Virus record (IMG/VR): IMGVR_UViG_3300027969_000001
Coordinates: 62,001-126,000 of that record
DNA length: 64,000 bases
From: a virus
Direction: 5' to 3' (one strand)
Positions within the stretch are counted from its first letter, which is position 1; each line of letters opens with the position of its first letter. This document shows, piece after piece, positions 17,459 through 64,000 of the stretch. The notes under the pieces were generated by a model. That model ran no database searches, was not told the DNA's origin, and saw nothing but the letters and a program-made list of their open reading frames with translations. The translations under genes were made by a program, and so were the position numbers.

Positions 17459-20400
17459 CTATAATCCCATCGTCTTTAGTTCTTCTACGGTTAATCCAAG
17501 GAACTCTGAAAGCATATCGTAGTGCTCTGCTTTGAGCCTTCTTAGTCCTTCGTTTGCTGGAGCCGTAGCGTAAGCTATTGCTTCCGCTATGTATTCCGCC
17601 CTGTTGGTTGCAGCGTAATCGCTTATTTGCTTAGCTAGTGATGAATCGTATTCTGAAAGCATGTTTACCATTGAGGAAAGTTCGTCTTCAATTTCGGAAC
17701 TACTTCTTCCGGCTTTTAGTTCGTCTTTTGCCCACGAGGTGGCGGCTTTTAGTTCTTTATAGATTCCATCTAAATCTTCTGATTCACGTTTGAATGCAGC
17801 TTTATTTGTCTTTTTAGCCATAGCGTGGATTGCGTGTCCAAGTTCGTGACGTATTACGTACTCTCCGGTAAGGTTTGTCCCCGGAATATAGTCCTTAAGG
17901 ACTTTGTCTGGGAATGCTATGAAGCCATAAGACGGTGTGTATACCCCGCCTCCGGCGTACCAGTTAGTTGGCTCTAGGTCGGATTCAAAAATAAACCCTT
18001 GCTTGAGCCCAAAGTCAGTTAGAAGCATTGGTGGTATGTCAAATCTTCCGAGCATGTTTCTCAATGATGGTGAATTGCTTAGTGTCAATTCAACTTTTTT
18101 CTGAAGTTCTTTTTGTTTATCCCAATTAATTTCTAGTTCTTCAATGAGTTTATTAATTTTTCTAATACTCTTGTTTGAATTCTTTGTGTGCGGAGAACTT
18201 CTCAATATTGATGCAAGCTCTTCAGGGGAAGACGGAACGGCTCTGATTGATAATTCATTTGCAGAATAAGCAACATATTCAGCGTCGCTGCGAGGTTTTG
18301 CTCCTGGACGGCCTTTGCGAAGCCTCCTATTTGACCTGCCGCTACTTAATCGCGTGGATTCAGGAGAGGAATCTCCTGCCTGTTCTCCTCCAGCATTGAG
18401 TATGTAATCTTCATCGAATGCGCCAGGGGTACCGCCGTAGTCTATGTCGTATTCAGAAACCGCAGGTATGCCTAGACGTCTTGATAGCGCTTGAAGTTTT
18501 TCTCCTTCGTCTGGGTTTTCTCCGGTGTAATCATCCCTTACTATGATGTAGGCAATATCGTCTAGCGAAATTCCGCCCTCGCCGGGATGTACCTGTGCTT
18601 CGACTGGATAGTCGAAAGTGTCTTTTTCTCCAGCGTTTCTCAACATCATCATGTTTATATCAGGAGAGTTCATTGCTGACGTTGTTCCCATTAAGCTGAG
18701 GGAGTCTGATTCTGTTACGGTTGTTCTGTCTTCATTTCCTGGCTTGAGGACTAATAGGTAGTTGCCGTACTGCTGACCAGAACCAGCCACTTCTTCAGTT
18801 ACTCCACCATATGCAGCCATTCCATAGATTGGTCTGAATTCTGGAGCCATATCTGGTGGATATCCAAACAGTGTTACTTCCGCTTGCTGTCTAGCTTGAG
18901 GATTGTAATGTCCATTGCTTCTGCCTGTTTCAAACTGACTAAGAAGTTTTTTGTTTTTTATAAGACCGCTTATTGCTTCTTTGTCTACAGCAACGACTAC
19001 GCGATTATAATCCATTGGCCCTGGCTGGAAATAATCTCCACCCATGCCAACGAGTTCTTTTGCGTATTTATCGTATTCGCTTACCAAGTCTTCAACGGTA
19101 CCTCTAACACGCATGTCCGCGGACATTATTATTTTTTTACGTTCATTTTCTAGATACTTAGCGCGTGTTATGTGTATCCCGGCACGAAGAACCAAGCCTT
19201 TGGCAATGGTTTCAGCATCCCATTCCATCATTTGAGGGTCTCTAGATAAAACTATTCCTGTTATTTTGTCAATTGCTGGACCGATGCGTTCACTGAATGG
19301 AGACCTCTCTCTAATACGTGCCCATGGCCCCTTTGAAGTTTCTAGTAGGAATGGGTTAATTTCTTCTCCGTCGAATGCTTTTTTAAAACGAGGGTCATCG
19401 AGTACACCATCAATTAGTTCACCAATAACAGCACCTATTTTAGGGTCTATAGTTTCGTCCAGAAGCCAAGATACTGGTCTTCCTTCTTTTCTTGCGATAG
19501 CAATATCTTCGGTTGGTTCCTTCAGTGACCTTGGATAGGCAGCAACAAGGGCTTTGGCGTGTTCGTTACTTACGTGCTCGGTTAGTCCGGACGAAAGCTT
19601 TTTTCCAGCGTTTTTCCCAACCGATTCTCTTTGTCCGTCAAGAACTTCCGGAGTGGCGGAAGCGGCAAAAGCTCTGCCATCCGGGGATAATGCATCAGAG
19701 TGTTGAAGGTTCTGTTCAGGCCATGTATCCCTGTGAAGGCGCATCATTTCTGATGCTATTCCCGTACGTCTGCGGGTTCTGGCTACGCCAGTCCTTAGGA
19801 TTTCGCTGTGGTCATCCTCGTTCCACTTTATGGTCGTCATCAGTCCTATCGAATTCTTGGAGTCTTCCATTCGCTTTAGGGCATCTAAGACGTTTACTTC
19901 TTCAATAGGAACTGGCCCTTTTTTATCAGTCATCGGATTGAAACCAAGTTTTGTCCAGCTTTCGGAAAGTTTTTGTCTAGCGTCATTTACGCTTCCAGTA
20001 TCATAAGCAGTTATGGTTCCACCAGCATCAAGAACTACCCAGTAGCTAGTTTCGTTTCCATCTTTAGATGTGTGTTCAATATGTCTTGCTGAAACTATGC
20101 CGTAGTAGTTTGCATTCATAACGCTCTCTACTACTTTTTTCTTACCGGACGACATGCGCAGTTCTTGATTTAATTCATCAGGCTGCAGTACTTCTGTTCC
20201 GGAAATGGAGCGAGGTTTTACCAGTGTTGATAAGTCCACTTTCTTGTTGCCCTGTTTATAGTTTTTAATAGCTCTAACAATAAGTGCGGGTGTTATCGCA
20301 TACAGTCTATTCCTGCCTTCATCAAGAGTAACGGAAGAGAATCCAACAAAAGGTCTCTGCATGCCGATTATTTGTTTTTCATAACCAGGTCCAAGCTTGT

Positions 20401-23400
20401 TGGTCCAGTGTTTGTGTTGTTCTCCACCAATAATCCACTGCGTTCCACGCATGGCGTACTGCCATCTTTGCATCATTACACTGTCATGTACTTTTAAGTC
20501 TTTGCCTCTGTTCTCGAAATCCCAATCTCTCGAAAGATTTTCTGCTATGTGTTTAGGGATTATTCGATGCGCGTATCTACCAAAATACCCCCCGGCCAAT
20601 TCTTCTCCAGTCATGAGTGCGCTCAAGAACTGATTGTCCGCTTCCTCGAGGGCCTTGATGACAGACTTTACATCGACTTGTTCATTCTCAAGTCCTGCAA
20701 TTCTTTTATGTGCTTCCGATATGAAGTGAGCAACATCCCACCCTCTAGCAGCGAGGTCTATTACTTGGTCTGGACTATTCTGACGAAATTCTTGAGATAG
20801 GTTACTAGACAACAATCCAAGTGAATTTCTGTTGTAGTTCCCAGCGTGTATTGTCCCATCAGTAGAAGCTGATTCAATAAACTTTTTTAATTCTTCAATT
20901 TGTTTTTCTATTTGATTATTTCTAGCTTTTACATCAGCGACGTTGATATTGTTAAGAGCTTTTGTGTCAGCAGAAGCAACATTAAAACCGTCAGAACCAA
21001 CAGTTTTTTTAGGGTTAAGGACTCCGCCATCAAGTTCTGATGAGCCTTGATGTATTAAGAATTTTTCTCCATCTGAAGCGCCATTACCGAATAGTTCCCA
21101 GTATTTATCTCTATCATTTTGTTTGAGTTCTAATATCTCTCGTGTTTCTTTAAGTAGGTCATCGTACTCTTCTGGAGTTATATCTTCTAGGTCAAGTACG
21201 TTTTGTTCAATTCTTATCTTCTTGCTATCATGTTTATATTGCAGCAAGGCTACTTCTTCTTTTAAAAGTCTTGACTTTTCATTAATATCGTCTTCAAATT
21301 TCTTAATCCAGTTTTTAACAAAAGAATCACGTTCGGGTTCCTTGTCGCTTCCCGGATATCTAGTCCACGACTCATGTCTTGCAGTAAACGCATCTTCAGC
21401 TCGAGTCACTATGTCTGCTTTTAGTAAGTTTTTTGCTTGAGCTTCCGATGAATGTATGGTCGGAGCATTCATGTTTTTATCTGAAGCAACCACAACGTCA
21501 AAGTCTCCGCCAAGCCAGTCGCCAGTTTTATTATAATGCTCCAAGGCCTGAGTAAATCTTCTCATATAGGAAGATTGTTCGTCTAGTTTTTCTTTCTCGT
21601 AAGAAGTATTAAATCGGGTATCAGCTTTGTACGGAGTTGGTTTTTCCAATACGTCTGTTTCTCCAGATGAAAGCTTCTTGGCCTCGATTTGTTTAGCCAT
21701 TGAGTCTCTATCAACGTCAACTAATTTTGTAGCAAGTGACTCTCCGTCTGCGCTGTATCGTGTTGCTTCATCAACTCTGAAAACCATCGCCTGCATCGGT
21801 CGGCCTAGTATTACTGTTTCATCTTCTTCTAGACACCCAAAGCCAGTAAATGGAGTAGAAAAAATATCTTTAATTGGCACAAAAGCCTTTATGACGTATC
21901 CACTTTGGTCATTACCTGGTCTTCTACTGAACGACCTGGCTGTAGCTTCATTGATTGACCAAGACGAAAGTGGCCTCATACGTACTTCACGTATATCCAT
22001 ATCGCCTATGGCTATTGGTTCTCCAAACGCATTTTCACCAGCAGTAATTCCTCTGTATACAGCAAGATGTGTTATCCCTCTGTCTTCGAAATACTGCTGC
22101 GTTGCTTCATGAGATGTTTGCAGGAATTCTCCAACAAATTTTCTTTGCATTTCGCTCAGGACTGGAGCACCATCGAAGTCTTCCATAATCTGTCCTGGGC
22201 CAGGGGATGCAACAACTCTGTCCATCCTATATTGATTTCCTCGGTCCCAACCAACAGCACCGTCTACGGAGAACAGTTCTCTGGCTACGTTCTGCATTGA
22301 TAACGCAACGTCGTTGGAGTCGTTTGCTGATATAGCCCATGTATGAACCAATCCTGATATTAACGCCTGCTTCAGAACCCCTTGCCCTTCTGGGGTATTG
22401 GCGTCAAACTCTACAAGACCACGGCTTTTCAACAATTCTTCAGGACTAGGTATTACTTTTTTAATATTTTGTATAGTTAGTTCTTTTAATACTTCTAGGT
22501 CTTTTGCGTCGTCCGGCGTATTTTTGTCAATTTTGGCGACCATCAATTCAGACAAGTCTTTGTAATCAGTACCTTTCTTTATTCCGTAGCCTTTTTGCAG
22601 TATCTGTTCCCAGTCATCCGGACTATTCATAAGAGAATATGAATCTATTGATATTAAGGTTCCGTCTTTTAGCCTGTATATGCCCAGGTAGTCATTTTCG
22701 GGATTGCCTTCTCTTCTTTGACGTGTTTCCCTATTCCCCCACATGTCAAAGTAATACAACTGAGTTTTTATTGCAGTTATATGGTCTCCGGACCAGCGGC
22801 GCATTTCAGTTGGACCTATGGAGCCTATTGAATAATCATCCATGGTTTTTTCATACATGTCCCACATGCTTGATTTATCAAAAAGCTCACCAGCAGTCAG
22901 TGATTCAAGTTTAGGAATAAAAGATTCGTTCCATATTTTGAGAACGCGCTGTTCTACACTGAAATCTATTCCCGAAGCTACCGAGCCTTTTTTGGGATTG
23001 TAAAAAAACTTACTTCCATCGCGCACTCCTTCGAGTGTTCTGTTAAGGATGAGTGATACGTCTCTAAAATTCTCGTCATCAGCAAAACCAACTCCGCTTC
23101 CAGGCATTGAAGTCTGAAACATTTTTACAAAATCTTGAGGAGTAAAATCCATAGATTCTGCTATTTTTTTAGAAATCTCTCTTTTAATTTTTGGAGCAGC
23201 AAGACTAGAATCAATATCGTATGTTCCAGGAATAGAAACCGCATCGTCAATAAACATCTGCAAGACGTCTTTTTCGTCAGCAGGTTTTGTTGGCGAGTAA
23301 GGCTTACGAGTTGTCGGTATTGGAACAAACTTGGCAATCTGTGCTTTTTTCCACTGCGTATCTCTTGATTGAGGAATAGAAGTTTCCGTTATTCTAGAAC

Positions 23401-26400
23401 GGCGCAAACCTTCTATTTCCGAAAGAGCACTTTCTAGTCTTCCGCGACGTTCGTCTCTTACTCCAGGGGAACGCCCAGATGAAAGAATCCGACCAGCCCT
23501 GTCGCCATCACGCCATGGCTGATAGGTGTCGTTTCCGCCAAGCAAGGTTGTTACAGCTTTCTTCAAGGAAGGACTAATCATTTCATTTTGTATTTTTTCG
23601 TCTGGATGCAGTACGGCGACAATGCCCTCAGCCATGGTTTCTGCCATGTTGACGTTTCCGTATGAAGTGAGCAAACGAGGAACGTCTGGAGTTTCAGAAA
23701 ACGGAACATCGTTTTCAAACATTGTTATTCTGTCTTGGTCATATGTAAATTTATTAAATTCAGAAGCAACAGCAAGTGCACGAGCATAGTTTGTGTTGCC
23801 CTTGTCTTTGCTGCCGTATCTTTGACGTGTATGAATTGTTGTCTTTGGTCCGCCCTCAGAGTCAGCTATGGCCTTGAAGTGCAGCCAGTGACCCCATTCG
23901 TGAAGCAGCGTTCCTGCAAGGGAGTTTTCTATTGACTTCTGTCCTTTTACTGGGGACTGACCATTCCATCGAAGAGTGCTTTTGGTTACTGACGGTATTG
24001 AGTCATCCAATGCTTCAAGAAACACCTCTTTGTTGAGATAGACGGTGTCCATGTTTGGACTCATTCTTCCTCTTGCCCTAACCGGCTTACCGTCGTTGCG
24101 TTGCTTTGCAATCGCTGCAAATTTCTCGCGCACTTCTGGTATTGCTTCATAGGCTGCTATGCCTTCTGGGTCCATGAAGGAGAAAGAAGGAGCTCCGTGG
24201 TTTTCAAAAGCCCACTTCATTTGTGGGTTATCTTCAATGGATTGTGCCAGGAGTTCTTGCATGGCTTTTACGTTGTCTGGTGAGAAGTCCGGGGTATCCC
24301 AAGGGTTTTTTTGATGAAAATCATCATAGTATTTCTGAAATTTTAATCTAGTAGCAGGGTCTACAACATCAGCGCCAGCGTAGTCGTCGAGCCACATTTG
24401 AAAATGTTCTTCACGATTTGAAGGAACCAAAACCTTAGCCATTTGTTCAGAGCTGAGACCTCTTAGCCATGTATTTGTAGTCTTTCTTATCTCGCCGCCA
24501 AGCACGCTCTTGTCGCCGTACTTGTAATCCTTGGCTCTGTGTTCTCTTAGAAGTTCGCGCTCGTTGCGACCAATTTCTATTATTGGTCTTTGGGGGGAAT
24601 CTGGTCTAATTTGTATAGACGGACGTTCCTGCCCTGAAGCAAGTGAGGGTCTGCTGCTCTTTCCCAAAATATCGTGCGCAAGAGCTAATTCAATATCTTC
24701 TTCGTTGGCTTCATAAATTGGCTTGCTTCCAGAAGACAGTCGTCCACTAGTAGATGCTGTATCAAGCTTCTTAATAACTGAATTAAAATCACCAGCATAT
24801 ATACGCGTTTCGGAGTCAGATACGCCTTCAATATCGAATACGGTTCTTGGTCGATTACGGTAGCCCATTGTTTCGTTCATATTTAGGTCGGACTCGTCAA
24901 GTCTGCCAACCCTGAGCATTCGTTCGGCGGAGTACATCATGTAATGAAGATGCTTAACGACCATTTTTTCTTGAGGCGTTAGAGGTGAGTCTGGGTGGTC
25001 CGCAAGGGACATCATGGCAAGGTCGTTTGCCCATTCTCCATGGCGGTCAAAAGCTCTACCGGTTCCGAGATGTCCGAATAGGTCATGGGTGTCTTGAAGT
25101 GCCTTGCCATAGAGTCCCATATTGAATTTATGCGGGTCAGTTATTCCACCTATGTAGCCACGAAGATATGTATCCGTGCTGTGGCTGATTCTTGAACCTG
25201 GAAGAAAAAGCTCCTCGTCACCCATTAGTTCGCCCGCACGGCGCGTAAGTTCCCTAACAAACTTGCTATGTTTTTTCCACGCTTCAAGATACGGTTCCGG
25301 CAATGTATCTTGAGTTAATGCTGGCAAACCAATACTGTCGCTCCTGATGACAAATCCTTTTGGAGCCAACATTTCCAACAGGGGGAATCTTTCCCTCGCC
25401 TCGTCGTTTTCAAATTCTAAAGTAGAAGCGTCGTTTTTGTATATTTTTCTTGCAATAATGTTTCCGTCGGAATCTTTCCATACGGAACCATTGAAAACAA
25501 CCGTATCTTTCATTGCTTCATCAAGTATTGAAATAACGTCATCACGCTTAGGCAACTCGACGGTACGCCAGTCTCGTTTGTCCGGTATCTGTTCTGCCAA
25601 TTGAGGTATCGGGTCAGCGGAAACAAACGGAATTCCGTCTGAAGAAATATCAATCGATATTGATTCAAGTAGCTGTTTTCCGGTTTCGGAAAACGCATTG
25701 TCCACTTCAACGTCAAGTAGTGTTTTCCCAGCAATTTCTTTGGTCAAGCCGGGAATAGCATCTTCAATAGAATATTTCTGTTGTTTTGTTAGTTCTTTTC
25801 CTGTCGTTTCTTCTATTTTTTTAATTATTCTCTCGGCAACTTTTTTACCCGTTAAAGACTCTCTAGTTAGTCCTATGTCGGCAGCTTCTTGCTGGGTTAC
25901 TTCTGTGGGTTCATTAAATGCTTCAACTACATTTGCGCCAGAAGAGAGTCTTGTGCTTTCCCCTTCGTTGCGATTTGAGTATATTTTTTCATCAGAAAAT
26001 CTTTCGTCTTTCTTTATCTCGTCTATAGCCCTATACATAGCATCAAGAAGAGACATTCCTTCTGCTTTGTATATTTCTCGCAAGCGGGCCATCTCTTCCG
26101 ATTTTTGACGACTCAATTCTGCGTCAAAATCCATAAGAACATAAGACAGTCCGCTACCGTCTGGATTATGTTCAAGTTTGAATGCTCTGTTTTTAAGCTT
26201 GTTTGATTCTTCGAGGCCTTCTAAGACTTTTTTTACTTTATTAACAGCCTTTGTCTGGCCTTCAGTACCCTTTCCTATTTTTCCAATCAATGCGTCTAGG
26301 GAGTTATATGCAAGTTCGTCGTCGTATACTTCTATTACAGCTTTTTTGGTTTTCTCGCCGTTTTTGTAAACTGGGCTATACAGGTACCCATATCGTTTTA

Positions 26401-47164: not shown

Positions 47165-47837
47165 AGCACTCTTCTTCAAGGGATTTTTGAACAGTAATTG
47201 ATACAACAACACGAGCACCACTATGGTCGTCTCCGTGGACTTCCCAGTTGTCATTGTTTCTAATAGCGTTAGTGAACGATGGCTCCATCTCCATAAAGTC
47301 ACGCAAAACGGTCATTGCATGCATTATGTCATCTTCTGTAACTACGTGGTTTTCTGCAGTGTCATATGGAGAGAAATCATGAAAGAACACGTCAGTTGAT
47401 GCTTCGGCTGACTTACCTGCTCCTTGAATTACGTTTGCAGGTTCTTTGCCTGTATTGATGTGTGTAGAGAATTGCCTATCATTCCAGTTCGTAAGTTTTT
47501 TAAGCTTCTTTCTACAGTTCTTCATCCCAGGATGATGACATCCTTCATTTGGCCATAGTCCTGTAGTTTCATGATGTAACCATGCGCACATGTTGTTAAG
47601 TGGGAATAGCTCTGGATGGTTAGCCAAAATAAGACGGCACCTACGGAATCCGCCCTCTTTACGCATGATTGGACGCCAGTAGCGGAGGAGGCGCTCTAGA
47701 TTGCCTCTGCGTGGCCCATGACCATGCATGATGTCACCAGTGATTCGTTCTTGTGGCAAAAAGTCCGGGACGGCATTTTGGGGCGTAGCTGGTACGTCAG
47801 CTGGAGAGATTTTTACCTCATTGTCGTAGTCACTCAT
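47157..47837 (-). CDS. Conserved actinophage protein (ERLLRYWRPIM family), 226 aa
   Basis: RGNLERLLRYWRPIMRKEGGFRRC and CAWLHHETTGLWPNEGCHHPGMKNCR (about 44-110) are strongly patterned, with many His/Cys suitable for metal binding. I recall this block from head-gene neighbourhoods of actinobacteriophages. Function is unknown. It ends EECCG. Confidence 0.7.
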   Translation of the reverse strand: MSDYDNEVKISPADVPATPQNAVPDFLPQERITGDIMHGHGPRRGNLERLLRYWRPIMRKEGGFRRCRLILANHPELFPLNNMCAWLHHETTGLWPNEGCHHPGMKNCRKKLKKLTNWNDRQFSTHINTGKEPANVIQGAGKSAEASTDVFFHDFSPYDTAENHVVTEDDIMHAMTVLRDFMEMEPSFTNAIRNNDNWEVHGDDHSGARVVVSITVQKSLEEECCG

Positions 47838-47838
47838 C

Positions 47839-48342
47839 TTATTTTTCCTCTATTTGTTTGAGAATTCTCATGGCAGTCCATGCTTTATTCTTGTCGCTTA
47901 ATGTCTTGAATGACAGATTTCCTATATCAGACTGTACCATCTCGCCACAACATGAATTGGATAGCTGCAAATTGCGTAATTGTTTATTAAGGAATGACTC
48001 AACTGCGTCAGATTTTGACTTAATATTTCTGGCGTTTCTGCCAAGTGATGTATATATTTTTATACCCTCAAGCATGGTTTTGTCTATGTCAATTGTTTTT
48101 GTTATAAACGTTTCATACCATTTCCCACTAGTCACAGAATGAGGTGAATCCCATAGGGTTCTATGAAATCTTGAAGACCTCATTTTGGTTAAACCGGAAA
48201 CCTTTGATGTAAATGCAAAAAAATCTACACTTACGGTTCCTCCGTCTTGCTTCTCCACGACTCCATCATCACCGTCTGGGCCGGCATCAAGCACATAGAA
48301 CAATTTGTCCCCATGTATTGAGCCGACCAATACTGCCCTCAT
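47839..48342 (-). CDS. Hypothetical head-region protein, 167 aa
   Basis: The N-terminal half is beta-rich (KLFYVLDAGPDGDDG), then helical with a CC pair near 131. Its ATG overlaps the stop of the 2645-residue gene (ATGA), so it is coupled to it. No family is recognised. Confidence 0.6.
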   Translation of the reverse strand: MRAVLVGSIHGDKLFYVLDAGPDGDDGVVEKQDGGTVSVDFFAFTSKVSGLTKMRSSRFHRTLWDSPHSVTSGKWYETFITKTIDIDKTMLEGIKIYTSLGRNARNIKSKSDAVESFLNKQLRNLQLSNSCCGEMVQSDIGNLSFKTLSDKNKAWTAMRILKQIEEK

Positions 48343-54300: not shown

Positions 54301-56276
54301 TTAAGTGCTTCAATGTTTATATCATCAGCAACATCTATCATGATGTTGGGCCAGTCGTAGCTCGTTATCTGAGTAAAATCAGTAACAGTTCTGTATCTCC
54401 CCGTAAACATTCCCGTTTTTTTGTCATATTCCGGAATGCGGATTGAACCACCAGCCATTAGTTCTGCTTCAATATGGTCCATAAATGCTTGGTACTGAAG
54501 TGTGTGAGAAATTTCGTGGAATATCTGCTGGCGCATGTACGATTTTTCGCCATCAATCAAACCGGCCATACCTCGTGCCGTGTGGTCGGCGTTGACGAGG
54601 AAATCTGCAACTGTTGCCCGTGCTTCAGCGTCAGTAGAGGCTCCAACTGCAGCTACCGAAAGTCTTTGATTTGGGCGCAACGATGGAAGTAGTGACTCTT
54701 GCCCAGACATGCTGTTGTGCATGTTTAGGGAGATTATGTATTTTCCACCTACGTACCTTGTACTCATTTCGTCAGTGCTCGAGTTGTCATACTCCATGAC
54801 GTTTGTGCGGCGCATCGTTGTTGGGGATTTTACATACTGGTCCAGAAGTCCCTCTAGGACTGCGCGCTCAGTGCTGTAGTACCTAGATACGTCTGCTTTT
54901 AAAACAATATCTTGTTCTTCTTTAGTTAAGTCTCTCCATCCTTTTACGGACTGTAGTCTTGCTTGGCAAAACTGCTCAACTTCAACCGGAGTAAGCATTG
55001 CTCCATCGGCTCCACCACGCTGATGAACGAGCCTTATGTCCCAACCAAGAGAGGGGTCAGAAGCCGCTAAAGCGCGAAGCGCATCAAACCCCTGCTTAAG
55101 GTCTTCATTTGTTGCTCGTGCAGTTTCACTTCTATCAACGCCGAGAGAATCAAGTATCGATGAAACACGGGCATCTGTTTGTAACATTCTGTCCTGTGCT
55201 CTTATTGCGCCATTCTTAAACCATCTCTGGTTTTCTGGCATCTCAATACTTCGCCAGTCAGGCGTGTCTACGCGTTCTCCAGTTATGGAGTCGTACCAGA
55301 CAGTTCTTCCGAGTTTTGCCAAATAAGAAGGGCTCGGTATTTCGCCAGGAACCCTGTCTGCCATTGGGTCGTATCTTTGGGAGCTCCAGTTGCCGTTAAA
55401 TACCCCATCAAAGAAACGTTGAGCAGTGGTTCTGGTCCCCTGTAGTTTCCCGTCAGCGGTGGCTGTTTGCGCCATTCTTGCAGCAAATCTACCGAACTTA
55501 GACGGACTAAAGCCAAAACAGTTTGTCCCATACATGTCCGTAAACTGATTTGCGGCCGGCGTCCCTGGAGGGCATCTGAACTTATTTAGCTCGTCTTTTA
55601 TTACTCCAAATGCGGCAGCCGCACGTGAAGCCAGGTTTCCCCCGGGAATACTGGAGCCTATTCTTTCCCCAGGAAGAATCTTTACTTCGGGGTCGAGCTT
55701 GTTTCCTGTTTCGCGACGCTTTTCTCCAACTGTTAATCCAGAAGTTATTGAGAACGGGTTGACTACTCGTCCAGACTCTGGGACAATATCGTCAGTACGT
55801 GGATTGACATCGTATACGGTTAGTTCTACGGATGGTTTTTTTATTATCTGATTTAGTTCGTCTTGAAAAGAACTTGACTTTGGCTCTTTATCAGCAAGCC
55901 AGCCAAAGTTTGGTTTTTCTTCCAAGCCATGAATACTTGAGTATGAAGGAAAAAGTTGAAGGTGTTTTCCTTCTTCCCATGTCTCGTCTGGCATGAATCT
56001 TTCGCCAGTAGGAAGAGATTCCATCCCAGGAATTGACCCGCCGCGCATGTCGCGCTTTTTGCCATCAGTATTATCTTTGTCTACGCCTCCACCAAGAGGA
56101 GTTCCATCAAGTGCTTTGATAGATATATCTGCGTATAGACGCTCAGTAGCAGAACTTATTGCAATTGATTTTCTGAACGAGACAGCAGTCTTGTTTATGT
56201 CTTTACAGCAAGACGTAGGCACTATTAAGCGCGCAGATAATATTACTCGTTCACGGACTATTGAATCACCCGTCAT
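48339..56276 (-). CDS. Giant polyvalent protein with zincin and ParB-like domains, 2645 aa
   Basis: It lies in the head cluster. Motif C235-x17-C253 (RCPPGTPAANQFTD...GTNC) is shared with the 681-residue protein. A metallopeptidase-like domain has HEISH at 587-591 with a later AEL glutamate. Long helical, coiled-coil-like sections follow (about 790-1000). [K/R]LSSG-type motifs at 1321, 1457, 2029 and variants at 1435 (VSSG) and 2303 (FSSG) divide the second half. Between 1457 and 2029 is a ParB-like domain with LDGHHRWAA (1866-1874). The last segment (2304-2645) is unrecognised. Likely packaged or processed; no second copy of any ART domain is obvious here. Confidence 0.8.
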   Translation of the reverse strand: MTGDSIVRERVILSARLIVPTSCCKDINKTAVSFRKSIAISSATERLYADISIKALDGTPLGGGVDKDNTDGKKRDMRGGSIPGMESLPTGERFMPDETWEEGKHLQLFPSYSSIHGLEEKPNFGWLADKEPKSSSFQDELNQIIKKPSVELTVYDVNPRTDDIVPESGRVVNPFSITSGLTVGEKRRETGNKLDPEVKILPGERIGSSIPGGNLASRAAAAFGVIKDELNKFRCPPGTPAANQFTDMYGTNCFGFSPSKFGRFAARMAQTATADGKLQGTRTTAQRFFDGVFNGNWSSQRYDPMADRVPGEIPSPSYLAKLGRTVWYDSITGERVDTPDWRSIEMPENQRWFKNGAIRAQDRMLQTDARVSSILDSLGVDRSETARATNEDLKQGFDALRALAASDPSLGWDIRLVHQRGGADGAMLTPVEVEQFCQARLQSVKGWRDLTKEEQDIVLKADVSRYYSTERAVLEGLLDQYVKSPTTMRRTNVMEYDNSSTDEMSTRYVGGKYIISLNMHNSMSGQESLLPSLRPNQRLSVAAVGASTDAEARATVADFLVNADHTARGMAGLIDGEKSYMRQQIFHEISHTLQYQAFMDHIEAELMAGGSIRIPEYDKKTGMFTGRYRTVTDFTQITSYDWPNIMIDVADDINIEALNGALSRIEVVSALAGSYPGDVYRKGGEHWALEVCAELWALREQGIIYGEDIDAALEWMDNVSMRAAAEDRAIVSSIIPSGDAGGDFIPDVSGDAVPDMPAEDMAEELISVGERTSEERRAALKSFSEAFKELPEEDMINNAALVAAQRDNASAKMDSIDDITSPAFDSAQKEFEFYDKMYEDAKKIWRKEHGVGSKTELARFEERVKEVRDAHGLYAPEEIEAASRAAALDDLKGLASSMSEKELVRKIADHSLLIKDIENSIASYVPADVETVPDGELTVVDIAALDKDLMDKAEELDLLRNQYAKSIKDAGDKRTTAQILMELDGKVETVLSPKPRASRKVASATEARDMGKKQRARLRRKITKEQSDAVKEMGTFDTDGLAGALEPSKQISVGRAANRKNARLKRLALPIDDKSSSEASFDDQIKNILVPTLEAMEVSSLGEQLDIETVMEFDPTIFTGVSIGREIENDGLLSGRVISKGQKKTVIDEATKINEETGKVKQRVVIVAKAKDRGIFPNIGDSGDQTVVMPPGKIRIVGREADGTIRIEIAEQKGTVEVLDSMATSIASGTDDAAWRKGASRKLKTFADNYAVTRHDSPLPGSRSDDADSVKETSRTVLSDVVDKGGVFGEAPTELPTYLESISKTSAERGGRPASEVARKLSSGHSDVFGPAMTREARTTQRNGRIKDRSVELRKVISGSGSGEHEALSISSLDSAVVKKLSTQSHEQIISDLETAAFQMHNGFDRRVRVRMREPDLEKFLADGTMRASSVGPQVSSGSRRVERLAGMDPAARAGRLSSGVSDSAEQVAERGKKEKAIAESALETFKKIADNGKDIETMSEEELSSFFGGTVRRSGQKSVSEKSSHLYEVDKVEDALALMMAGHHVMVKHEDVRLTEQAQKQFEELVKQEAANQIENEHPEWLKFKSEFEKINSDEDLKSPEMIAEAKRQYKEKHQADLCMLYNPENNLLCSGHIGIAREDMPQTNGRTTGHDSVAIRMLKDGKAAGKWAPLGNKGDAVKQNIEIEQRYVAEIEKENQKLIADGKSAMTPQQQTAFVYKTIGEKHNTENELTKKTVAEHRATFLALPEDEKQWLYDNTNWQDVEVNLEMPFIEFLKEQIKTEDGRDGVITKAADPTTYQPSQRQLVASKVDSTNEDITKDVFKQVKKLEDSGLVRGTPEFKKAYDEAMSKLWFMSPILATEDKYILDGHHRWAAIIVANRSLPKELQLPLNVNEVQTDIVEGLTLGKVFQGEWGIKAAKLGVEDKWKVGTIDSISDEDIVSKAKVLEKDAPGLVDEMYAGGSFIKLGSVGLSRNPDYAARLSERQSIAYDRRLLSEASAARETAYNAAVIEEARLGSAPKTVEEKINKLSSGLSDALTGRGRGKAPIAGWDEGDTFGAEVARRLDGTPEAKAVHDAYEVYEGGKSYEDMYGEPFNADKQLTRELDAVKKASKKRESIVQAMLQEGWEKDKNAKKSSPQPVRIENGDLSGRSKRRAVNGAVNSALKKSNINSSYRRPIRDAIWESHRSAIQTYHYELDQLANDISRHSAPELAEIAIRDLHRRGEITESEMLSTIKNIQPGTMSVEEKTKIANAYKDASDAFMRVATVSKDAEKLSPTSQRTAGKFGRINKQRGWTSGPIAAKFSSGASVGMANEKLSREYYSRIGIPPDVSNETMPVSGYLVHKSHVDEKIRRATAANKGNVSNDAIFEIGDKDIVGDGLTSLGDIEVVLKSGVSNRTSYGRGEAMNTSHRPVKLNSINKHDILDATINAEGKNNKNNNMDATLHLMGAGMDGNFAHVNAGLSDDGKMAPVKKLDTADRKRVPFEAQILGGFDKDEVEQINYPYSKIKEMSSNVDISDVVNTKTISEKLRASGFSQEEIDYFYSLGGAGKMNSQNMQMLREYRAAQGVKDKFNKLGFNNIRIAHPDGINIENPRIIAKNVSPSANMESILRNEIMFDIQEQAEKALKEMRKGGKPELITNLRRPR

Positions 56277-56290
56277 GCCGGGGTCCCTTT

Positions 56291-57991
56291 TTAAAATTCG
56301 TCGTCGAGAGTGTCTTCGAGCAACTGGAACTCGACAAGTGCTGCCATGAATTCTGCTTCATTGAGTGAGTCGCCCTTCTCTTCCGTACCAGCTAGCCAGC
56401 TTGCTGGCACAAGACTCTCAAGCTTGAGAGCGCGAGCGCGCTTCATGATGTGCTTCTTGGTCGCGTCTTTGTCTTTTGCTCGCCCAAATGCCTGAATAGC
56501 ATTACGGAGGTCTGACTCTTTAACGATTGGGTAAGAACCGTCAGGCATTGCTTCGCCTGTTTTGGCTAAGTCAAAACGTCTTGTCTCTGAAAAAGCTCTC
56601 TTGAGTGCGATTTCGGCTGCTTCTGCTTCAATTGAAGCAGCTTCATCCTGTTCATATTTGTCGTAACCCAAAATTTCTCCATCTAGTGCAACGAAAACGT
56701 CGTATGACTTCCCGTCGAATCCTTCAATCTCTACTGCGTAGGAATCAAAGCCTTCGAAAACGTCTGGTTCAACAGCAACAACATGACCGTCAATTGATTT
56801 GACTGCAATTTCAGCAGCTTCGGTAAAGTCGATTAGTTTGTAACCACCGAAGTCTGATTTTTGCTCAAACTCAGCGTTGTCAAGCTTATGGAAACCCATA
56901 ACCTCAGCACTTGTTCCATCAATGAATACTTCTTTAACAGAACCATCTTTTGTCTGAACATCAACTACGAACATGTCAGCATCAGATGAGTAACCAGAAT
57001 CGATAACGACCCCGTTAAACATCTTCTCTGCAAGACCTTCTACGTGAAGAATTCCTGGCATTCCCTTTTCCGCAACACAACCGCCTGGGCAGTCATCACA
57101 AACCGGAGTTGAGCTATTATAGCCCTTGCGCTCTAGGGCACAAACGTAACCCTTGGTTCCCATTTCTGCTTCATCAATTCCCATTGATTTAATTCTCATA
57201 GAACGAATTTCTTCCCACTCTGGGTCGTTGGCAGAGAATGACTTTTCAGCCATCATGTCGTCTTCTTCGTCATCCACTTCTTCGCCAGTTTCAGGCATTT
57301 GAAGTTTTTTCTTCTTGAGTGGCATGCCGTTTTCATCTTCTTCTTCTTCATCTATGCCGCCGTCGAGAGCATCTTCTGCGTCAGCCATGCCCTTCTTCTT
57401 AATAGGCATACCGTTTTCGTCTTCTTCGATTTCTTCGTCAGCTGGACCATCCGCTACATAAGCTGGGTCGACAACAAGGTTAGGGGTACCCTTCATGGCT
57501 CCGGTCTGACGTACTGGGACTCGAGGCTTTCCCGAATCATTATCTCCATCATCCATGGTTGCATCAATCGGGTCACCAACGGTGTCTTCGTAATCGTCGT
57601 CCATTCGGTCATCTTCGCCGTAAGGGACTGTTTCTGCATCTGCAGGAATCGGTTCTTCGTCGTCTTCTGGTTTTGGTTCAAGCTTCATGTCCTCTTCAGG
57701 CATATCGTCTTCCATGACAGGATTGCCTTCGGCGTCGAGAATAGGGTTACCGTTTTGGTCAAGCTTTGGCTTTTTCTTTGGAGCAGTAGCTCCAGCCATT
57801 GGCTGTTCTGGGACAATGGATGCTGCAGGCTCTGCTGGGACCATCTTCATTTCCATCGGCATTGCTCCGCACTTAGCGCACAAATCTGCGCCCTTTTCAA
57901 AACCGCACTCACTTACAGCAAGCGCTTTTGCGCATTTAAGCACGTTTCCATCACTGTCAATGTTGACGGTAGCCTTTTCATCGTAGCTCAT
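56291..57991 (-). CDS. Acidic head protein with PepSY-like and DUF6582-like regions, 566 aa
   Basis: The order is CGFEKGADLCAKCG zinc-like knuckle (28-42); a very acidic region with DxNGNP/DENGMP repeats (75-235); VCDDCPGGC; a PepSY-like unit (about 385-440, FTEAAEIAVKSIDGHVVAVE...YAVEIEG...EILGYDKYE); and a C-terminus YPIVKESDLRNAIQAFGRAKDKDATKKHIMKRARAL like DUF6582 found near phage head-maturation proteases. It may be scaffold or protease partner. A serine protease core is not seen. It lies between the two giant genes. Confidence 0.65.
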   Translation of the reverse strand: MSYDEKATVNIDSDGNVLKCAKALAVSECGFEKGADLCAKCGAMPMEMKMVPAEPAASIVPEQPMAGATAPKKKPKLDQNGNPILDAEGNPVMEDDMPEEDMKLEPKPEDDEEPIPADAETVPYGEDDRMDDDYEDTVGDPIDATMDDGDNDSGKPRVPVRQTGAMKGTPNLVVDPAYVADGPADEEIEEDENGMPIKKKGMADAEDALDGGIDEEEEDENGMPLKKKKLQMPETGEEVDDEEDDMMAEKSFSANDPEWEEIRSMRIKSMGIDEAEMGTKGYVCALERKGYNSSTPVCDDCPGGCVAEKGMPGILHVEGLAEKMFNGVVIDSGYSSDADMFVVDVQTKDGSVKEVFIDGTSAEVMGFHKLDNAEFEQKSDFGGYKLIDFTEAAEIAVKSIDGHVVAVEPDVFEGFDSYAVEIEGFDGKSYDVFVALDGEILGYDKYEQDEAASIEAEAAEIALKRAFSETRRFDLAKTGEAMPDGSYPIVKESDLRNAIQAFGRAKDKDATKKHIMKRARALKLESLVPASWLAGTEEKGDSLNEAEFMAALVEFQLLEDTLDDEF

Positions 57992-58117: not shown

Positions 58118-61100
58118 CTAAACAGCTGTTGAATCAGAAATTACTCTCGTTCCATTTTTGTTTTTACCGTAAAGAGTTTTTCCATCTTTTTCTATACGCT
58201 CTCGCGCTGTACGAAGTTGTTCCGCACTGAAAATGTCATCTATGGAATAATTTGTTCCAAAAACTTCATTGAATCTATTTACAACACCCTGAAGCTCATT
58301 TGTTGAATATCGAGGGCTGTCGCCCTTCTTCGGAGAAAAAACTGGACCACGTGTAGCAGCCAGTTTAGGCAGCTCAGTATGTATGTCTTTTTTACCGATT
58401 ATTGAATGAACAGTCTCTCTATTGGCTTTTGACTTTTCCACGCCACTCTTTTGAATGAATTCATTTAGGGCTTCGTACACAGCATGCTTGGAACGACTCA
58501 GCTCGGAATCAAGCTGTTGACCAGCTTTCCCTTCCGTCCAAATAGAAGAAGCATCAGGTATTACTCCCTTGCGAATCATTTCATCGATATAAGCGACGGG
58601 AACGCCTTTCTTTTCCCATTCAGCAGCATCACGCCTACTTCCAAGACCAACATTCTGACTACCAAAACTTTCAGCAATCACTTGACGGAGTTTTTCGTGC
58701 CAGTTATCGTTTTTGCTAATACCGAGGTGCTCCAGAAGGGGCTCTATTTTGAAATCCTGTCTAGATGTCTTGTCGGTTGCTATCTGCTCAGCAGTGACTG
58801 TTCCTGATGGAGTTAAGGATGCCCCAGACATTCCTTCCAGCATTAAATTATGTTCTGCTTCCGAGTCGCCATCAGTAGCACTATTCTTCTGGAATCGGCC
58901 CATTGCCTGAAACTTGGCAACAGGACTAACTTCCCCAAGAGAAGCGTATTCATCTGGCGTTATTGATTGTTGTTCTTCTTGGTCAAACCAGTGAGGGAAT
59001 GCGTCTTTACCAAAAGTCTCAACAATGAATCGGTCTCGCATGCTGGCTCGGCCTATATTCTCGGCAAATACTTCTTCAGCGTTCCACTTTTTCTGCTTTG
59101 CTTCCGCCGAATCTACTGGGGCAAAAAGCCTCCATGCTCCGAATTCTTTTTGCTTGCCGGTTTCGGCCAACATGTACCTGACTGCGTCATGGTTAATAGC
59201 TGCGCCATCTTTTTCCAACAACGCAGCGTCTCTTCTGCCAAGACCAAGCATGCTTGCTAACTCGGCATTGGTGATTGGACGAGTCTGTGAATGGAAAGAC
59301 TCAGACAGTGAACCACTATCGGTATAATCCCTAGTCCACTCTGTCGGAACACGAATGGCATCCTTGAGCTTGGATACTGGGAGCATCCATGTCTCAGCTG
59401 AAGGCTCTTGATTGCCACCATTTTGAGATATGTTTCCAATCTTAATTGATGGGCGCTCGCGCATTCTTTCAGAAATAGCATTAAGCGCATTATTCAGTGC
59501 TTTTTGTTTCTGGGCAGGGTCTGTTGAGTCGGAGTCAATATCAAGTGCTATGCCATTATCTCTAAAGCCCTTCCATATGCTCATTGATGTTTTTGTGATT
59601 GCTCTATTAGTGCCACTATTTTTTGTAACGCTAGAGAACCCAGCAAGCTCTATGGGGTGCGCTAAACGTCGGGTGTCGCCTTCTGCACCAGACATGTCCT
59701 CGCCGGCATTACCGACCGTACGAATACGCCTGGAGAGACGTCCACCAGCATTTGATGAAGCTGCACCACTGCTTAGTTTGGCAACGCTTCCTGAATCGCT
59801 TTCAGGGAAGTCATTAATCCAGTCTAGTGAACCAAGTTCAAGCTGTTCTTCTGCTCTTGTAACGGCAACATAAGAAAGTCGGAGTTCCTGCTCGTCAGGC
59901 ATAATCCATGTTTTCTTCTCTTTGTCCCACTTTGGTTTTCTAAAGTCTGACCAAATTTTTACTCTTGGAGACTCAAGACCCTTAGAGGTATGTGCTGTTT
60001 GAATATGCACGTAGTCGTCGCGATTTTCTGGCAGTTTTTTCTTGTCGGTAATAATCTTGCTGAGTGCTTCACGCAAGTCTGCAACAGAGTTCTCTGCAAG
60101 CAGCTTATTAAGCATGTTTAATCTGTTGTTATCCCCGTCCTCTATGGCTTTTTTGAATTCTTCCATAGTAGTAATTCCGTCAAGGTCTTGACTTGGAGGT
60201 GGAGGAGTCTTGACTTCTTTGCCAAATTCGTTGATGTAGAAAGGGTTGCCTTTTGCTTTGTTTTCCATCCAGTCAATGTTTTGGATAAAATTTTCTAAGT
60301 CTTTCTTAAAGTTCTTACTTCCATATACAGCGCCGCCCTTGCTGAAAACATCCATAGTTGCCGCAATGGCTCCACCGTTTGCACGAGTAAGAATCATTGT
60401 TGGTTTATCTATAGTTGTAATTACTCCATCTACAGGATTACCTGACTTGTCTGCTTTCTTTCCGGTCATGCGTTCTTTTGCACCAAGAAGCGATAGGAAC
60501 TGGTTTCCTACTCCAGCAATTACTTTTCCAAATCTATAAGAATCTGTAATTGGCATGTCATATACGGATTTTGCATCATCTAAAGTTTTTCCATCAGCCC
60601 CTCGCCAGGCGTTGATGGCCTGATTGGTATCGCCAATGTAAATTTTTTGAATATCGCCAGAGTTTGCCAGCATCTTTGCAAACACAGGGTTCATATCCTG
60701 TGCCTCGTCAACCATGGCTATATTGGCTCCGGCTATTTTCCCAATGTCTGGGTCGGTTAGTGCCCATATTTTTGTTAAATGAGCGTTGTTCGTTGGCAAC
60801 ATTCCCTTTTTGCCATCACGTGCAGTATTAATGTCTTCCCACATTTTCTTGGCATATCCGACCAACTCGGGAAGTATTTTTTCATCTTTCACTGCTAATG
60901 AACCATTGAAGGCACCGGTAAAGTGCTGAGGGCCAACTTCCTTATCATCACTGATTACGAAAGCATCAATTGCCTTCTGTACTCTCTTGTAAACATCTAT
61001 GGCACTGAGTTCATCTGCTTCAGAAACCATACCCTTTATACCGAGATATGCGGCTCTATCTTTGTAAGACTTGATTGGGTCTATCCAGTTGACAGCATCA

Positions 61101-64000
61101 GCCTCGTAGCTTTTATCAGTCAAGTTTCTATTAATTGCCTTCATGGCATTGTAGGAAAGACTGTCCATAGTTCTAATCTGGAAGAAATCTGGAGAGATGC
61201 CTTCTTTGGCTATTCTCTTTGTTACGTCGTCTTTGGCGTTAACGTTAAATACTAAATAAGCAATTCTTGCTTCCGGTTCTGATTTCTGCAGTCTCTTAGC
61301 AAAGTTAATAACTGTTGTTGTTTTACCCGTTGCCGCTAAAGCTCTAACCTTTACGTCTGCTCCAGTCATCATTGCGTCTATAGCAACATCTTGTTCAGGG
61401 TTAGGTTTTCTGTTGGCAGGGAGGTCTGGGTAGTCGTATTTCTCAACGTCTTTTATGTCAATTATTTTTCTAGGTTTTCTAGAGAATGGAGCACTTGGTG
61501 TACTTGGCGCACCTGGGGCATTCGGGGTGGAAGGCTTGGATGGAGTAGCGTCACCATTTGGCCATACGGTTTTGCCGTTTTCAACGGTAGGCCAGCCATA
61601 AACCATGTTACGAAGCGTGTCCCACTGTGACTGACTAAGGACTCCATTTTTACTCTTATGCTGAGAAAGAACACTAGGTAAGAAACTTTCTTCAAAACCC
61701 TTTTTGGGAGTTTTTGCTGCGGCAGCTTCTATTAGTTTTTTCTGCTCTTCTGGATTTGGCATGTCTCCTGGTGGATTTTTGCCAGAAGACAGGCTTTGCG
61801 GAGCAGTTACTGTTGGTGTAAATGTTGATGCTTTAGGAGCTCCACCACCGTACGGATTCCAGTGTCCGTTTGGCCTTTGTTGTTCTGGTCCGAGTTTTGT
61901 TGGACCATTGGCAATGCCGTCAATACCGGTGTTTCTGGCTGGGTCGAATATCCAATCGAGGCCTGGACCGGGGTCAAAACCTAATTTTGCACGAGTAAGT
62001 GCAACATACAGAAGATGTGCTTCTTCTCTTGGCAACCTATTGTTAACCTCACCAGCATCTTTCTGTGCTTGAGTGAGTGCAATCCCCATGTCACGAGCAT
62101 TGGACCTTCCCCAGTCATCACCCATCATGACGTAGTCGGCTTCAAGGCCTTTTACCCCGTGTCCGGTAATTACTTCAATATCAACGCCTTCAGTGTCGTT
62201 TACGTGGTCTGTGAGGTATCTTCCAAGTTCTGAAACAATAGAAGCACTTTCTTCTAGGGTGTCACCGGAGACAACCCACCCATCGCCAGGCGGGCGCTGC
62301 GCCTTCCCGTCTAAAGCAACACTCTTCTCATGGTAGGATATTTTCCCTTCCATTTTGTGGTCTTTAATCCATTTTTGAAGTGCAAGTCTGCTTGGCCCGA
62401 GCGCAGTAGCTTTTGTGGCTGAGCCGTTCGCGGCCGTGTATGACTTTACTCCGTCAACTCCGTTACCGGTTATGAGAATACTCTTCCCGTCCCATTTGCC
62501 TGATGCCGTAACGCCAGGACCAAGCCACGAACCAGAGTCGGTAAATAATGGTCTCCAGTAAACCCTATTAATATCTGCGTCACCATTAAGAGATGCTGGA
62601 ATAATTATGTTTGGCTCAAGGCCGCCCATTATCCACGGGCCATTAGCACCAGCACCAGATTTCTTGGGATTGAGTGCTCCCTGTATTTTTACAGCTTCAA
62701 TATCAATTTGTTCAAATGGGTCTATGTCTACCCTTTCTTGAACTGGAATAATTTTTCTCTTAGAATAGTCAAATTCACCTTTTACTGAGTCCCACATGCC
62801 CTCTAAGGCTTCTACGTAATCCATGGCGCTCATGTTGGCTTGCATTATCGCCCCGGTTTGTGGGTCTCTATATGTAGCCCGTGTTCCGTCTGGGTTCATT
62901 TTAGGCAAATCAAGAAGCCTCATCAACGAGAGCGCGTCAGCATTAGCTTTACCGTCGATAGAAAGTATTCTCTTGACGTCTTGAATACTTGCAGCGTCCA
63001 TCACTTTTCCACCAAGAAGCTTTGACTCCACTGGTCTTGCAAGTTTTTTGCCAGAGTTAATCCAATTCAGAACCTTCATTGCGGCAAGCATTTTAGAGTG
63101 TCTTTCCTCCGGCATGCCAAGCGTCTTACCAAGTCGCGTGCTTATTTCTATACCTTGAGAAATCATTCCCGCATTGGTCCTGAATATAACCATGTTTTTG
63201 CCAGGACGGTCAAATTTGTAGTCTCTAAGTATTTCTCCGTCAGCCTGAGCAGCAAGAGCCTGCATGGCATCGGTTAATAATTTGTCTCTATCTTTTTCAT
63301 TAAGTGAGGGAAGCGCGGAAAGACTTACAATGTTTTCATCCAGACGATTGTTTCTTTTTTGTATGTCGACCCATCGAGCGTCGTACTTCTTGGCAAGTTT
63401 TTGAAATTTTTTAGTAAGTTCATCTTTGGATAGTCCAGCAATACTGAAGTCGGCTTCGACTACACCAGCAGCTCTACCAAACAATTGGTAATCGGAAGCT
63501 TCTGGGTCTACGCCATCGTTTCTGTCCTCGATATTCAGCATGTTAAGAATCGAGTTACCTAAGTATGCTTGTAATCTTCCGTATCTAAAAGAGTCACGAA
63601 GGGTTAGTTCAAATGTTGGTTTTACTTGAGCAAAAGTATCTGATGAACCTCTAAACCCAAAGATTGACTGACGTGGGTCACCAACCATCATTATGCTGAC
63701 GCCTTTTTCGGCATTGTCGGCAATTACTTGCTGAACTACCTGGTTAGTGTCTTGTGCCTCGTCGAACATGAACAGGCTCAACGGTTTGTCTTTTGTTCCA
63801 AACTGGCGGTACCACGTTGCACCTGTCTTGTTGTGTGTAACAATGCCTGTCTTGCCTTTGACGGCTCTTGTTCCGGATGGGGTGGCTTTTGGAAAACCCT
63901 GCTGGTCCCTGCTGGCGTGACCAATCAAACCTGGGTCTGTTGATAGGTCAGGCTTGGTTAATGCCCACATTTTTACTTGATGGTCAAAAGTTGGAAGAAC
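58118..64000 (-). CDS. Giant tandem UvrD/PcrA-like helicase, 5' end missing (at least 1960 aa)
   Basis: The frame is open to the right edge, so the start and the first Walker A lie outside. Helicase 1 shows DEAQD (about 63750-63764), GDPRQSIFGFRG and VALTRAK. QSLSSG (L codon 61792-61790) then opens helicase 2, which is complete: AATGKTTTV (about 61320-61345), DEAQD (about 60697-60712), GDTNQAINAWRGA, HTSKGLE and VAVTRAEEQ. AKLSSG (59776) begins a 550-residue tail with two short GRRDAA...EK units. Both halves share the P-T-x(4-6)-K-x-WALT block, evidence of internal duplication. A 3'-5' DNA translocase role is expected. Confidence 0.82.
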   Translation of the reverse strand, partial: VLPTFDHQVKMWALTKPDLSTDPGLIGHASRDQQGFPKATPSGTRAVKGKTGIVTHNKTGATWYRQFGTKDKPLSLFMFDEAQDTNQVVQQVIADNAEKGVSIMMVGDPRQSIFGFRGSSDTFAQVKPTFELTLRDSFRYGRLQAYLGNSILNMLNIEDRNDGVDPEASDYQLFGRAAGVVEADFSIAGLSKDELTKKFQKLAKKYDARWVDIQKRNNRLDENIVSLSALPSLNEKDRDKLLTDAMQALAAQADGEILRDYKFDRPGKNMVIFRTNAGMISQGIEISTRLGKTLGMPEERHSKMLAAMKVLNWINSGKKLARPVESKLLGGKVMDAASIQDVKRILSIDGKANADALSLMRLLDLPKMNPDGTRATYRDPQTGAIMQANMSAMDYVEALEGMWDSVKGEFDYSKRKIIPVQERVDIDPFEQIDIEAVKIQGALNPKKSGAGANGPWIMGGLEPNIIIPASLNGDADINRVYWRPLFTDSGSWLGPGVTASGKWDGKSILITGNGVDGVKSYTAANGSATKATALGPSRLALQKWIKDHKMEGKISYHEKSVALDGKAQRPPGDGWVVSGDTLEESASIVSELGRYLTDHVNDTEGVDIEVITGHGVKGLEADYVMMGDDWGRSNARDMGIALTQAQKDAGEVNNRLPREEAHLLYVALTRAKLGFDPGPGLDWIFDPARNTGIDGIANGPTKLGPEQQRPNGHWNPYGGGAPKASTFTPTVTAPQSLSSGKNPPGDMPNPEEQKKLIEAAAAKTPKKGFEESFLPSVLSQHKSKNGVLSQSQWDTLRNMVYGWPTVENGKTVWPNGDATPSKPSTPNAPGAPSTPSAPFSRKPRKIIDIKDVEKYDYPDLPANRKPNPEQDVAIDAMMTGADVKVRALAATGKTTTVINFAKRLQKSEPEARIAYLVFNVNAKDDVTKRIAKEGISPDFFQIRTMDSLSYNAMKAINRNLTDKSYEADAVNWIDPIKSYKDRAAYLGIKGMVSEADELSAIDVYKRVQKAIDAFVISDDKEVGPQHFTGAFNGSLAVKDEKILPELVGYAKKMWEDINTARDGKKGMLPTNNAHLTKIWALTDPDIGKIAGANIAMVDEAQDMNPVFAKMLANSGDIQKIYIGDTNQAINAWRGADGKTLDDAKSVYDMPITDSYRFGKVIAGVGNQFLSLLGAKERMTGKKADKSGNPVDGVITTIDKPTMILTRANGGAIAATMDVFSKGGAVYGSKNFKKDLENFIQNIDWMENKAKGNPFYINEFGKEVKTPPPPSQDLDGITTMEEFKKAIEDGDNNRLNMLNKLLAENSVADLREALSKIITDKKKLPENRDDYVHIQTAHTSKGLESPRVKIWSDFRKPKWDKEKKTWIMPDEQELRLSYVAVTRAEEQLELGSLDWINDFPESDSGSVAKLSSGAASSNAGGRLSRRIRTVGNAGEDMSGAEGDTRRLAHPIELAGFSSVTKNSGTNRAITKTSMSIWKGFRDNGIALDIDSDSTDPAQKQKALNNALNAISERMRERPSIKIGNISQNGGNQEPSAETWMLPVSKLKDAIRVPTEWTRDYTDSGSLSESFHSQTRPITNAELASMLGLGRRDAALLEKDGAAINHDAVRYMLAETGKQKEFGAWRLFAPVDSAEAKQKKWNAEEVFAENIGRASMRDRFIVETFGKDAFPHWFDQEEQQSITPDEYASLGEVSPVAKFQAMGRFQKNSATDGDSEAEHNLMLEGMSGASLTPSGTVTAEQIATDKTSRQDFKIEPLLEHLGISKNDNWHEKLRQVIAESFGSQNVGLGSRRDAAEWEKKGVPVAYIDEMIRKGVIPDASSIWTEGKAGQQLDSELSRSKHAVYEALNEFIQKSGVEKSKANRETVHSIIGKKDIHTELPKLAATRGPVFSPKKGDSPRYSTNELQGVVNRFNEVFGTNYSIDDIFSAEQLRTARERIEKDGKTLYGKNKNGTRVISDSTAV

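What the first reader, a model, noticed from the sequence alone, without database searches (positions are those of the whole stretch)
17459..64000. Recurrent [R/K][L/M/F]SSG pentapeptide divides three giant phage proteins: candidate polyprotein processing code
Eighteen motifs (14 exact LSSG, plus MSSG twice, VSSG and FSSG) occur in the 4250-, 2645- and >1960-residue proteins, 15 with R or K just before the hydrophobic residue. They fall between recognisable domains (ART, exonuclease, zincin, GNAT, ParB, helicase). Composition alone would predict about one or fewer. Serine codons differ from site to site (TCT TCT, TCT AGT, TCA TCT, TCG TCC, AGT AGC, AGC AGT), so the motif is kept as peptide, not as copied DNA. 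Phages such as T4 and the phiKZ group mature internal head proteins at short recurrent sites, but I know of no LSSG code. Inference: a phage protease cuts at this motif to release 190-600-residue effectors.
Basis: partly seen in the sequence, partly recalled or inferred. Interest (0 to 1): 0.93.

Follow-up and report, generated by a model that had tools for sequence, protein, structure and literature searches.

The report
Phage polyproteins with lineage-specific cut signs
A large environmental phage strings many host-takeover and anti-defence domains into three giant proteins with the same five-letter sign at the joints; its relatives use other signs in the same role, as expected if a phage protease cuts there, which would make this a phage counterpart of the polyproteins of RNA viruses, though no cut has yet been observed.

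Summary
Over the three complete proteins (10,264 aa) LSSG occurs 16 times against 0.33 expected. The third giant is truncated by the window. In 20 related lineages the same giants carry 268 [LMFVI]SSG sites against 11.4 expected. None of 86 sites falls inside a Pfam domain (17 expected). Modules that moved between giants break at the sites. Related phages lacking LSSG carry another recurrent motif (ISG[RK]M, GFASRG, RGMASR, GLASxS, LGSRS), shared by the giants of one genome and clustered on the protease tree. That concerted change points to one trans-acting reader with drifting specificity, most simply a protease. I infer that these are polyvalent, probably head-packaged, polyproteins cut into modules. 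The S78 protease is the likeliest reader; a conserved zincin in the second giant is the main rival. No cleavage has been shown, and capsid-protein sites do not clearly follow the motif variants.

The parts
17459..30211 (-). Giant A, 4250 aa, 11 sites, 12 predicted modules (ParB-C-like, RNase_T exonuclease, two HExxH zincin-like, weak GNAT, DUF3626)
48339..56276 (-). Giant B, 2645 aa, 5 sites, all after residue 1320; undivided N-terminal 1321 aa
58118..64000 (-). Giant C (window part). The full protein is 3369 aa, record 120118-130227, with an N-terminal S78 protease (record about 129703-130137) and an ArdC-MPTase module, both outside the window
29876..29887 (-). site A1 RMSSG
29297..29308 (-). 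site A2 KLSSG
27593..27604 (-). site A3 RLSSG
26717..26728 (-). site A4 RLSSG
25937..25948 (-). site A5 RLSSG
24728..24739 (-). site A6 RLSSG
23474..23485 (-). site A7 ILSSG
21662..21673 (-). site A8 KLSSG
20144..20155 (-). site A9 RMSSG
19586..19597 (-). site A10 KLSSG
18338..18349 (-). site A11 RLSSG
52305..52316 (-). site B1 KLSSG
51963..51974 (-). site B2 QVSSG
51897..51908 (-). site B3 RLSSG
50181..50192 (-). site B4 KLSSG
49359..49370 (-). site B5 KFSSG
61781..61792 (-). site C4 SLSSG
59765..59776 (-). site C5 KLSSG
54504..54518 (-). HEISH of the giant-B zincin, rival reader of the sites
29924..30142 (-). N-terminal tag domain of giant A (aa 24-96), 70% identical to giant C aa 535-611; possible head-targeting signal (inference)
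56291..57991 (-). 566-aa acidic ORF between giants C and B, C-terminus similar to the end of actinophage capsid maturation proteases; no sites
42126..43475 (-). major capsid protein, QLSSREIKSIG before the N-arm

Best explanation
The three giants are polyvalent-type polyproteins. Each has an N-terminal region that may direct it into the prohead, followed by a string of independent modules (anti-restriction ArdC-MPTase, exonuclease, UvrD helicases, zincins; in relatives also sigma-70 region 4, NUDIX, zeta toxin, DnaJ). The recurrent motif is a proteolytic processing site at the module joints. A phage protease, most likely the S78 prohead protease fused to the N-terminus of giant C, cuts there during head maturation, so that separate modules are delivered into the host with the DNA. 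The recognised motif drifts between lineages, and the sites in the giants of a genome change together. Shown by computation: motif, junction position, module shuffling, co-occurring protease, lineage variants.
For: LSSG 16 against 0.33 expected. S78 domain at the N-terminus of giant C. 41 giants of 20 LSSG lineages: 268 sites against 11.4 expected, 1 in 11,302 aa of neighbouring 450-999-aa ORFs. 0 of 86 sites inside Pfam domains, 17 expected, minimum 7 in 5000 shifts. Homology between different giants ends a median 20 aa from a site or protein end, 114 if random. The exonuclease and ArdC modules change place with sites at their edges. Other lineages use other motifs shared by several giants of a genome and the LSSG lineages form one protease clade, 99/91. 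Two of three sites in the modelled stretch lie in predicted disorder, the third in a coil. HK97 prohead protease cuts the capsid protein at K103/S104; the phi12 capsid protein is cut at R128/L129, which resembles [RK]|LSSG.
Against: No cleavage data. The capsid protein, the expected S78 substrate, shows no clear change with the motif variants. A basic residue directly before the core is present in only 55% of pooled sites, so the scissile bond is undefined. S78 genes also occur in related lineages without a detectable motif. In the ISGxM lineages the protease ORF is separate from the giants.
Confidence: 0.6

Rival explanations
1. The motif is a processing site, but the reader is the zincin metallopeptidase in the undivided N-terminal 1321 aa of giant B (or another phage or host peptidase), not S78.
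For: HExxH and distal Glu invariant in 22 sequences at 28-48% identity; an HExxH lies at a comparable place in giant B of the GFAS-type and ISGxM phages. Capsid proteins do not follow the variants.
Against: No fold match in the PDB for the modelled domain; HExxH also occurs in motif-less relatives. The ArdC-MPTase zincin is ruled out as a general reader: absent from several genomes that have a motif.
Confidence: 0.2
2. The motif is an uncut recognition or docking element at module joints, for example for packaging, chaperone binding or unfolding on injection.
For: Concerted change within a genome only requires a common binder.
Against: Position at every joint rather than once per protein, long stretches without it (B 1-1320), and a protease in the same gene cluster fit cutting better.
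Confidence: 0.13
3. Ordinary flexible linkers, with sequence kept by duplication and gene conversion between modules.
For: Sites lie in loops or disorder; some modules are duplicated between giants.
Against: Codons differ; linkers around the core are unrelated; ordinary linkers in the comparable Racecar gp78 are PE-rich without a fixed motif.
Confidence: 0.06
4. Chance or composition artefact.
For: None found.
Confidence: 0.01

Closest known systems
Polyvalent proteins of phages and conjugative elements (Iyer et al. 2017, PMC5512222)
   Same: Giant multidomain proteins with ArdC-N, MPTase-PolyVal, ParB-like, helicase and nuclease domains; release of domains by embedded peptidases was proposed there.
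   Different: Here a recurrent short motif marks the joints, it changes by lineage, and the fused protease is an N-terminal S78 prohead protease; the paper reports MPTase or C-terminal assemblin-like peptidases and no joint motif in the passages read.
Prohead proteases with a recurrent motif: SPN3US gp245 (AXE) and T4 gp21
   Same: One head protease with a short motif acting at many sites in packaged proteins (PMC10052503; T4 from general knowledge).
   Different: In SPN3US 13 of 14 known cuts remove N-terminal propeptides; here sites separate whole domains, and the motif lacks Glu.
HK97-type S78 prohead proteases (HK97 gp4, phi12 gp32)
   Same: Same protease type as the N-terminus of giant C by Pfam and the same place near portal and capsid genes; cuts after K/R in HK97 and phi12.
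   Different: Fused to a polyprotein of thousands of residues; no repeated code described for those enzymes in the passages read.
Phage P1 Dar proteins
   Same: [quoted passage not shown] DarA believed to be processed (PMC9024508).
   Different: No string of motif-bounded modules is described there.
Arthrobacter phage Racecar gp78 and relatives
   Same: Giant UvrD-type helicase protein just after the portal gene.
   Different: PE-rich linkers, no recurrent joint motif found.

Membership tests
Polyvalent proteins | Two to fifteen domains of disparate activity in one polypeptide | tested here: met
Polyvalent proteins | Typical domains (ArdC-N, MPTase-PolyVal) | tested here: met
   PF18818 3.4e-36, PF08401 5.7e-14; ArdC fold match TM 0.75-0.78 on the target
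Polyvalent proteins | Transmitted into the host with the DNA | not testable with these tools
   needs virion proteomics
Peptidase S78 (HK97-type prohead protease) | Profile match above curated cutoff | tested here: met
   PF04586 38.4 bits, cutoff 21; phrog_80 1.6e-23
Peptidase S78 (HK97-type prohead protease) | Gene between portal and major capsid protein | tested here: met
   portal next to giant C; capsid gene further on in the same direction
Peptidase S78 (HK97-type prohead protease) | Cleaves the capsid protein delta domain and packaged substrates | not testable with these tools
   no proteomics
Viral polyprotein processed at a repeated site | Recurrent site at domain joints | tested here: met
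Viral polyprotein processed at a repeated site | Site and protease specificity change together | tested here: inconclusive
Viral polyprotein processed at a repeated site | Demonstrated cleavage | not testable with these tools
   none available
T4/SPN3US-type code | Cleavage motif ending in Glu | tested here: not met
   the motif cores contain no Glu

The most novel reading that the evidence does not exclude
A large clade of uncultured tailed phages related to actinophages makes RNA-virus-style polyproteins: strings of host-takeover and counter-defence modules joined by a protease code that drifts between lineages, so that the protease and up to about 20 sites per protein change together and modules are exchanged as site-bounded cassettes.
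Probability: 0.6. Interest if true: 0.93.

Novelty: new variant of a known kind. Interest (0 to 1): 0.86.

Why it matters
If true, module boundaries of unknown phage effectors can be read straight from sequence, giving a ready list of counter-defence and takeover proteins. It would supply a natural series of protease specificities (LSSG, GFASRG, ISGRM, LGSRS and others) among closely similar phages, useful for studying how a protease and its many sites change together. It would also make testable the proposal that polyvalent proteins are cut into their domains before or during injection.

Tried and rejected
ArdC-MPTase as the universal reader: rejected, absent from several genomes that have a motif. 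Matching variation of the capsid-protein cleavage region with the motif: looked promising at first (QLSSRE in LSSG phages) but did not hold in the ISGxM, GFASRG and LGSRS lineages. The tape measure protein as a further substrate: two sites in this genome, none in the 1575-aa ORF that appears to correspond in relative G010. A clean link between the giant-B zincin and the presence of a motif: not found. No solved-structure match for the giant-B zincin region. No LSSG phage code found in the held literature; other searches for phage polyprotein processing gave only the works cited. Copied DNA as the source of the motif: rejected, codons differ. A fixed basic residue before the core: only 55% of pooled sites.

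Full report
OBSERVATION. The window is positions 62001-126000 of a 158,714-base IMG/VR virus record. Over the complete proteins LSSG occurs 16 times against 0.33 expected from composition, KLSSG 8 and RLSSG 6 against 0.02 each. Serine codons differ between sites and between relatives at one homologous site (13 spellings in 16 sequences).

WHAT LAY OUTSIDE THE WINDOW. Fetching the rest of the record showed that the third ORF is 3369 aa. Residues 31-175 match a Peptidase_S78 prohead protease (PF04586 1.8e-9, phrog_80 head maturation protease 1.6e-23), followed by a tag region, a site, an ArdC-N plus MPTase-PolyVal module (3.4e-36; the model matches the ArdC crystal structure with TM 0.75-0.78 on the target), two sites, UvrD-type helicase sequence, a site, a further UvrD helicase, a site and a C-terminal module. 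It lies next to the portal gene. Giant A carries an exonuclease, a ParB-C-like module, two HExxH zincin-like sequences and a weak GNAT match.

RELATIVES. A scan with the tag domain and a scan with the capsid protein gave many related contigs. Divergent relatives carry LSSG sites in the corresponding giants, several at homologous joints with unrelated linkers. In 20 LSSG lineages, 41 ORFs of at least 1000 aa (113,493 aa) hold 268 [LMFVI]SSG against 11.4 expected; 21 ORFs of 450-999 aa hold 1. These lineages are related, so they are not independent samples. Named phages with the same type of capsid protein and protease infect actinobacteria (Brevibacterium phage Cantare, Gordonia phages), so an actinobacterial host is a guess.

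SITES ARE JOINTS. In six giants with Pfam annotation none of 86 sites lies inside a domain; 17 are expected and the minimum in 5000 random shifts was 7. Homology between different giants ends near sites or protein ends: median distance 20 aa against 114 random, 51% within 20 aa against 11%. These 61 matches include reciprocal pairs, and the shared motif can lengthen an alignment by a few residues. The exonuclease module of giant A reappears in giant C of G030 and in giant B of G045, bounded by sites in each. The ArdC-MPTase module sits in different places of giant C in different lineages, with an LSSG-type site at its 5' edge in nearly all sequences that cover that edge. In an AlphaFold model of 541 residues two of three sites lie at pLDDT below 50 and one in a confident coil.

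LINEAGE VARIANTS. Relatives without LSSG were searched for motifs de novo. Five lineages use [IV][ST]GxM, mostly ISG[RK]M (75 against 1.1 expected; LSSG 6 against 4.4). G053 uses GFASRG (19 G[FLM][AS]S sites in a 4905-aa protease-giant), G055 RGMASR, G052 GLASxS, G054 GFASxS (together 53 against 2.3; LSSG 3 against 2.0), L223 LGSRS (15 sites), with GFSSxT and GMRSRS in others. De novo log10 scores were about -12 to -42 for the clear cases (weaker for single short proteins, -7.2 for giant C of this phage alone) against a best of -6.8 in 40 shuffles; Zooman, DalanDe and tape-measure controls gave no comparable motif except acidic-proline repeats in Zooman gp70 and Racecar gp78. The regular expressions for the variants were written after they were seen, so those expected counts describe strength and are not independent tests. 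The variants share a loose theme, a hydrophobic residue followed by small residues, often with R or K beside them. On the protease tree the LSSG lineages form one supported clade, 99/91.

INTERPRETATION. Several giants of a genome carry the same variant, and the set differs between lineages. That is expected if one trans-acting factor recognises the sites and its specificity drifts. With module-joint position and a protease in the same gene cluster, proteolytic processing is the simplest reading. S78 is favoured because it was found in the lineages with a motif for which the protease region was held and because prohead proteases are known to process packaged proteins; HK97 and phi12 capsid proteins are cut at K|S and R|L, compatible with R|LSSG. 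Against S78: the capsid protein does not clearly follow the variants. The giant-B zincin, with invariant HExxH in 22 sequences, is the main alternative. ArdC-MPTase is excluded as a universal reader. The tag shared by giants A and C may be a head-targeting signal, by analogy with P1 DarB; this is inference.

KNOWN OR NEW. The giants meet the domain-content criterion of polyvalent proteins, whose release by peptidases was proposed in 2017. Recurrent prohead-protease motifs are known from SPN3US and T4. A module-delimiting code in strings of effectors, fused to the protease and varying by lineage, was not found in the searched literature, which holds open-licence papers only. Hence: new variant of a known kind.

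Noticed in passing
window 29924-30142 (giant A aa 24-96) and giant C aa 535-611 (record about 128395-128625): A tag domain of about 75 aa, 70% identical between the two giants, with an EF-hand-like FDPDNDGWVDEG stretch; possible head-targeting signal.
   Followed up: partly
giant B N-terminus (window about 55500) and window 45119-47302: Giant B has RCPPGTPAANQFTD...TNCF, also present in giant B of the ISGxM phages; the 727-aa ORF has a similar RCPEGYQFGGRFTD...TTCG stretch.
   Followed up: no
record 149368-154299 (L006): The putative tape measure protein carries RFSSG and KLSSG; a 1575-aa ORF in relative G010 that appears to correspond has none.
   Followed up: partly
window 42126-43475: The capsid protein has QL[ST]SREIKSIG before the N-arm in most LSSG phages, but other lineages differ without matching their motif.
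   Followed up: yes
L196 5798-17608: A 3937-aa giant in an ISGxM phage holds DnaJ, zeta toxin, NUDIX and GNAT domains.
   Followed up: no
record 1-701 and 158054-158714: Collagen-like GATGPTG repeats at both ends of the record, suggesting that the record was broken in one repeat-rich fibre gene.
   Followed up: no
L264, L275, L276, L279 and G056, G057: Related phages with an S78 protease and a giant of about 2000 aa or more but no detectable recurrent motif; a natural negative comparison.
   Followed up: partly
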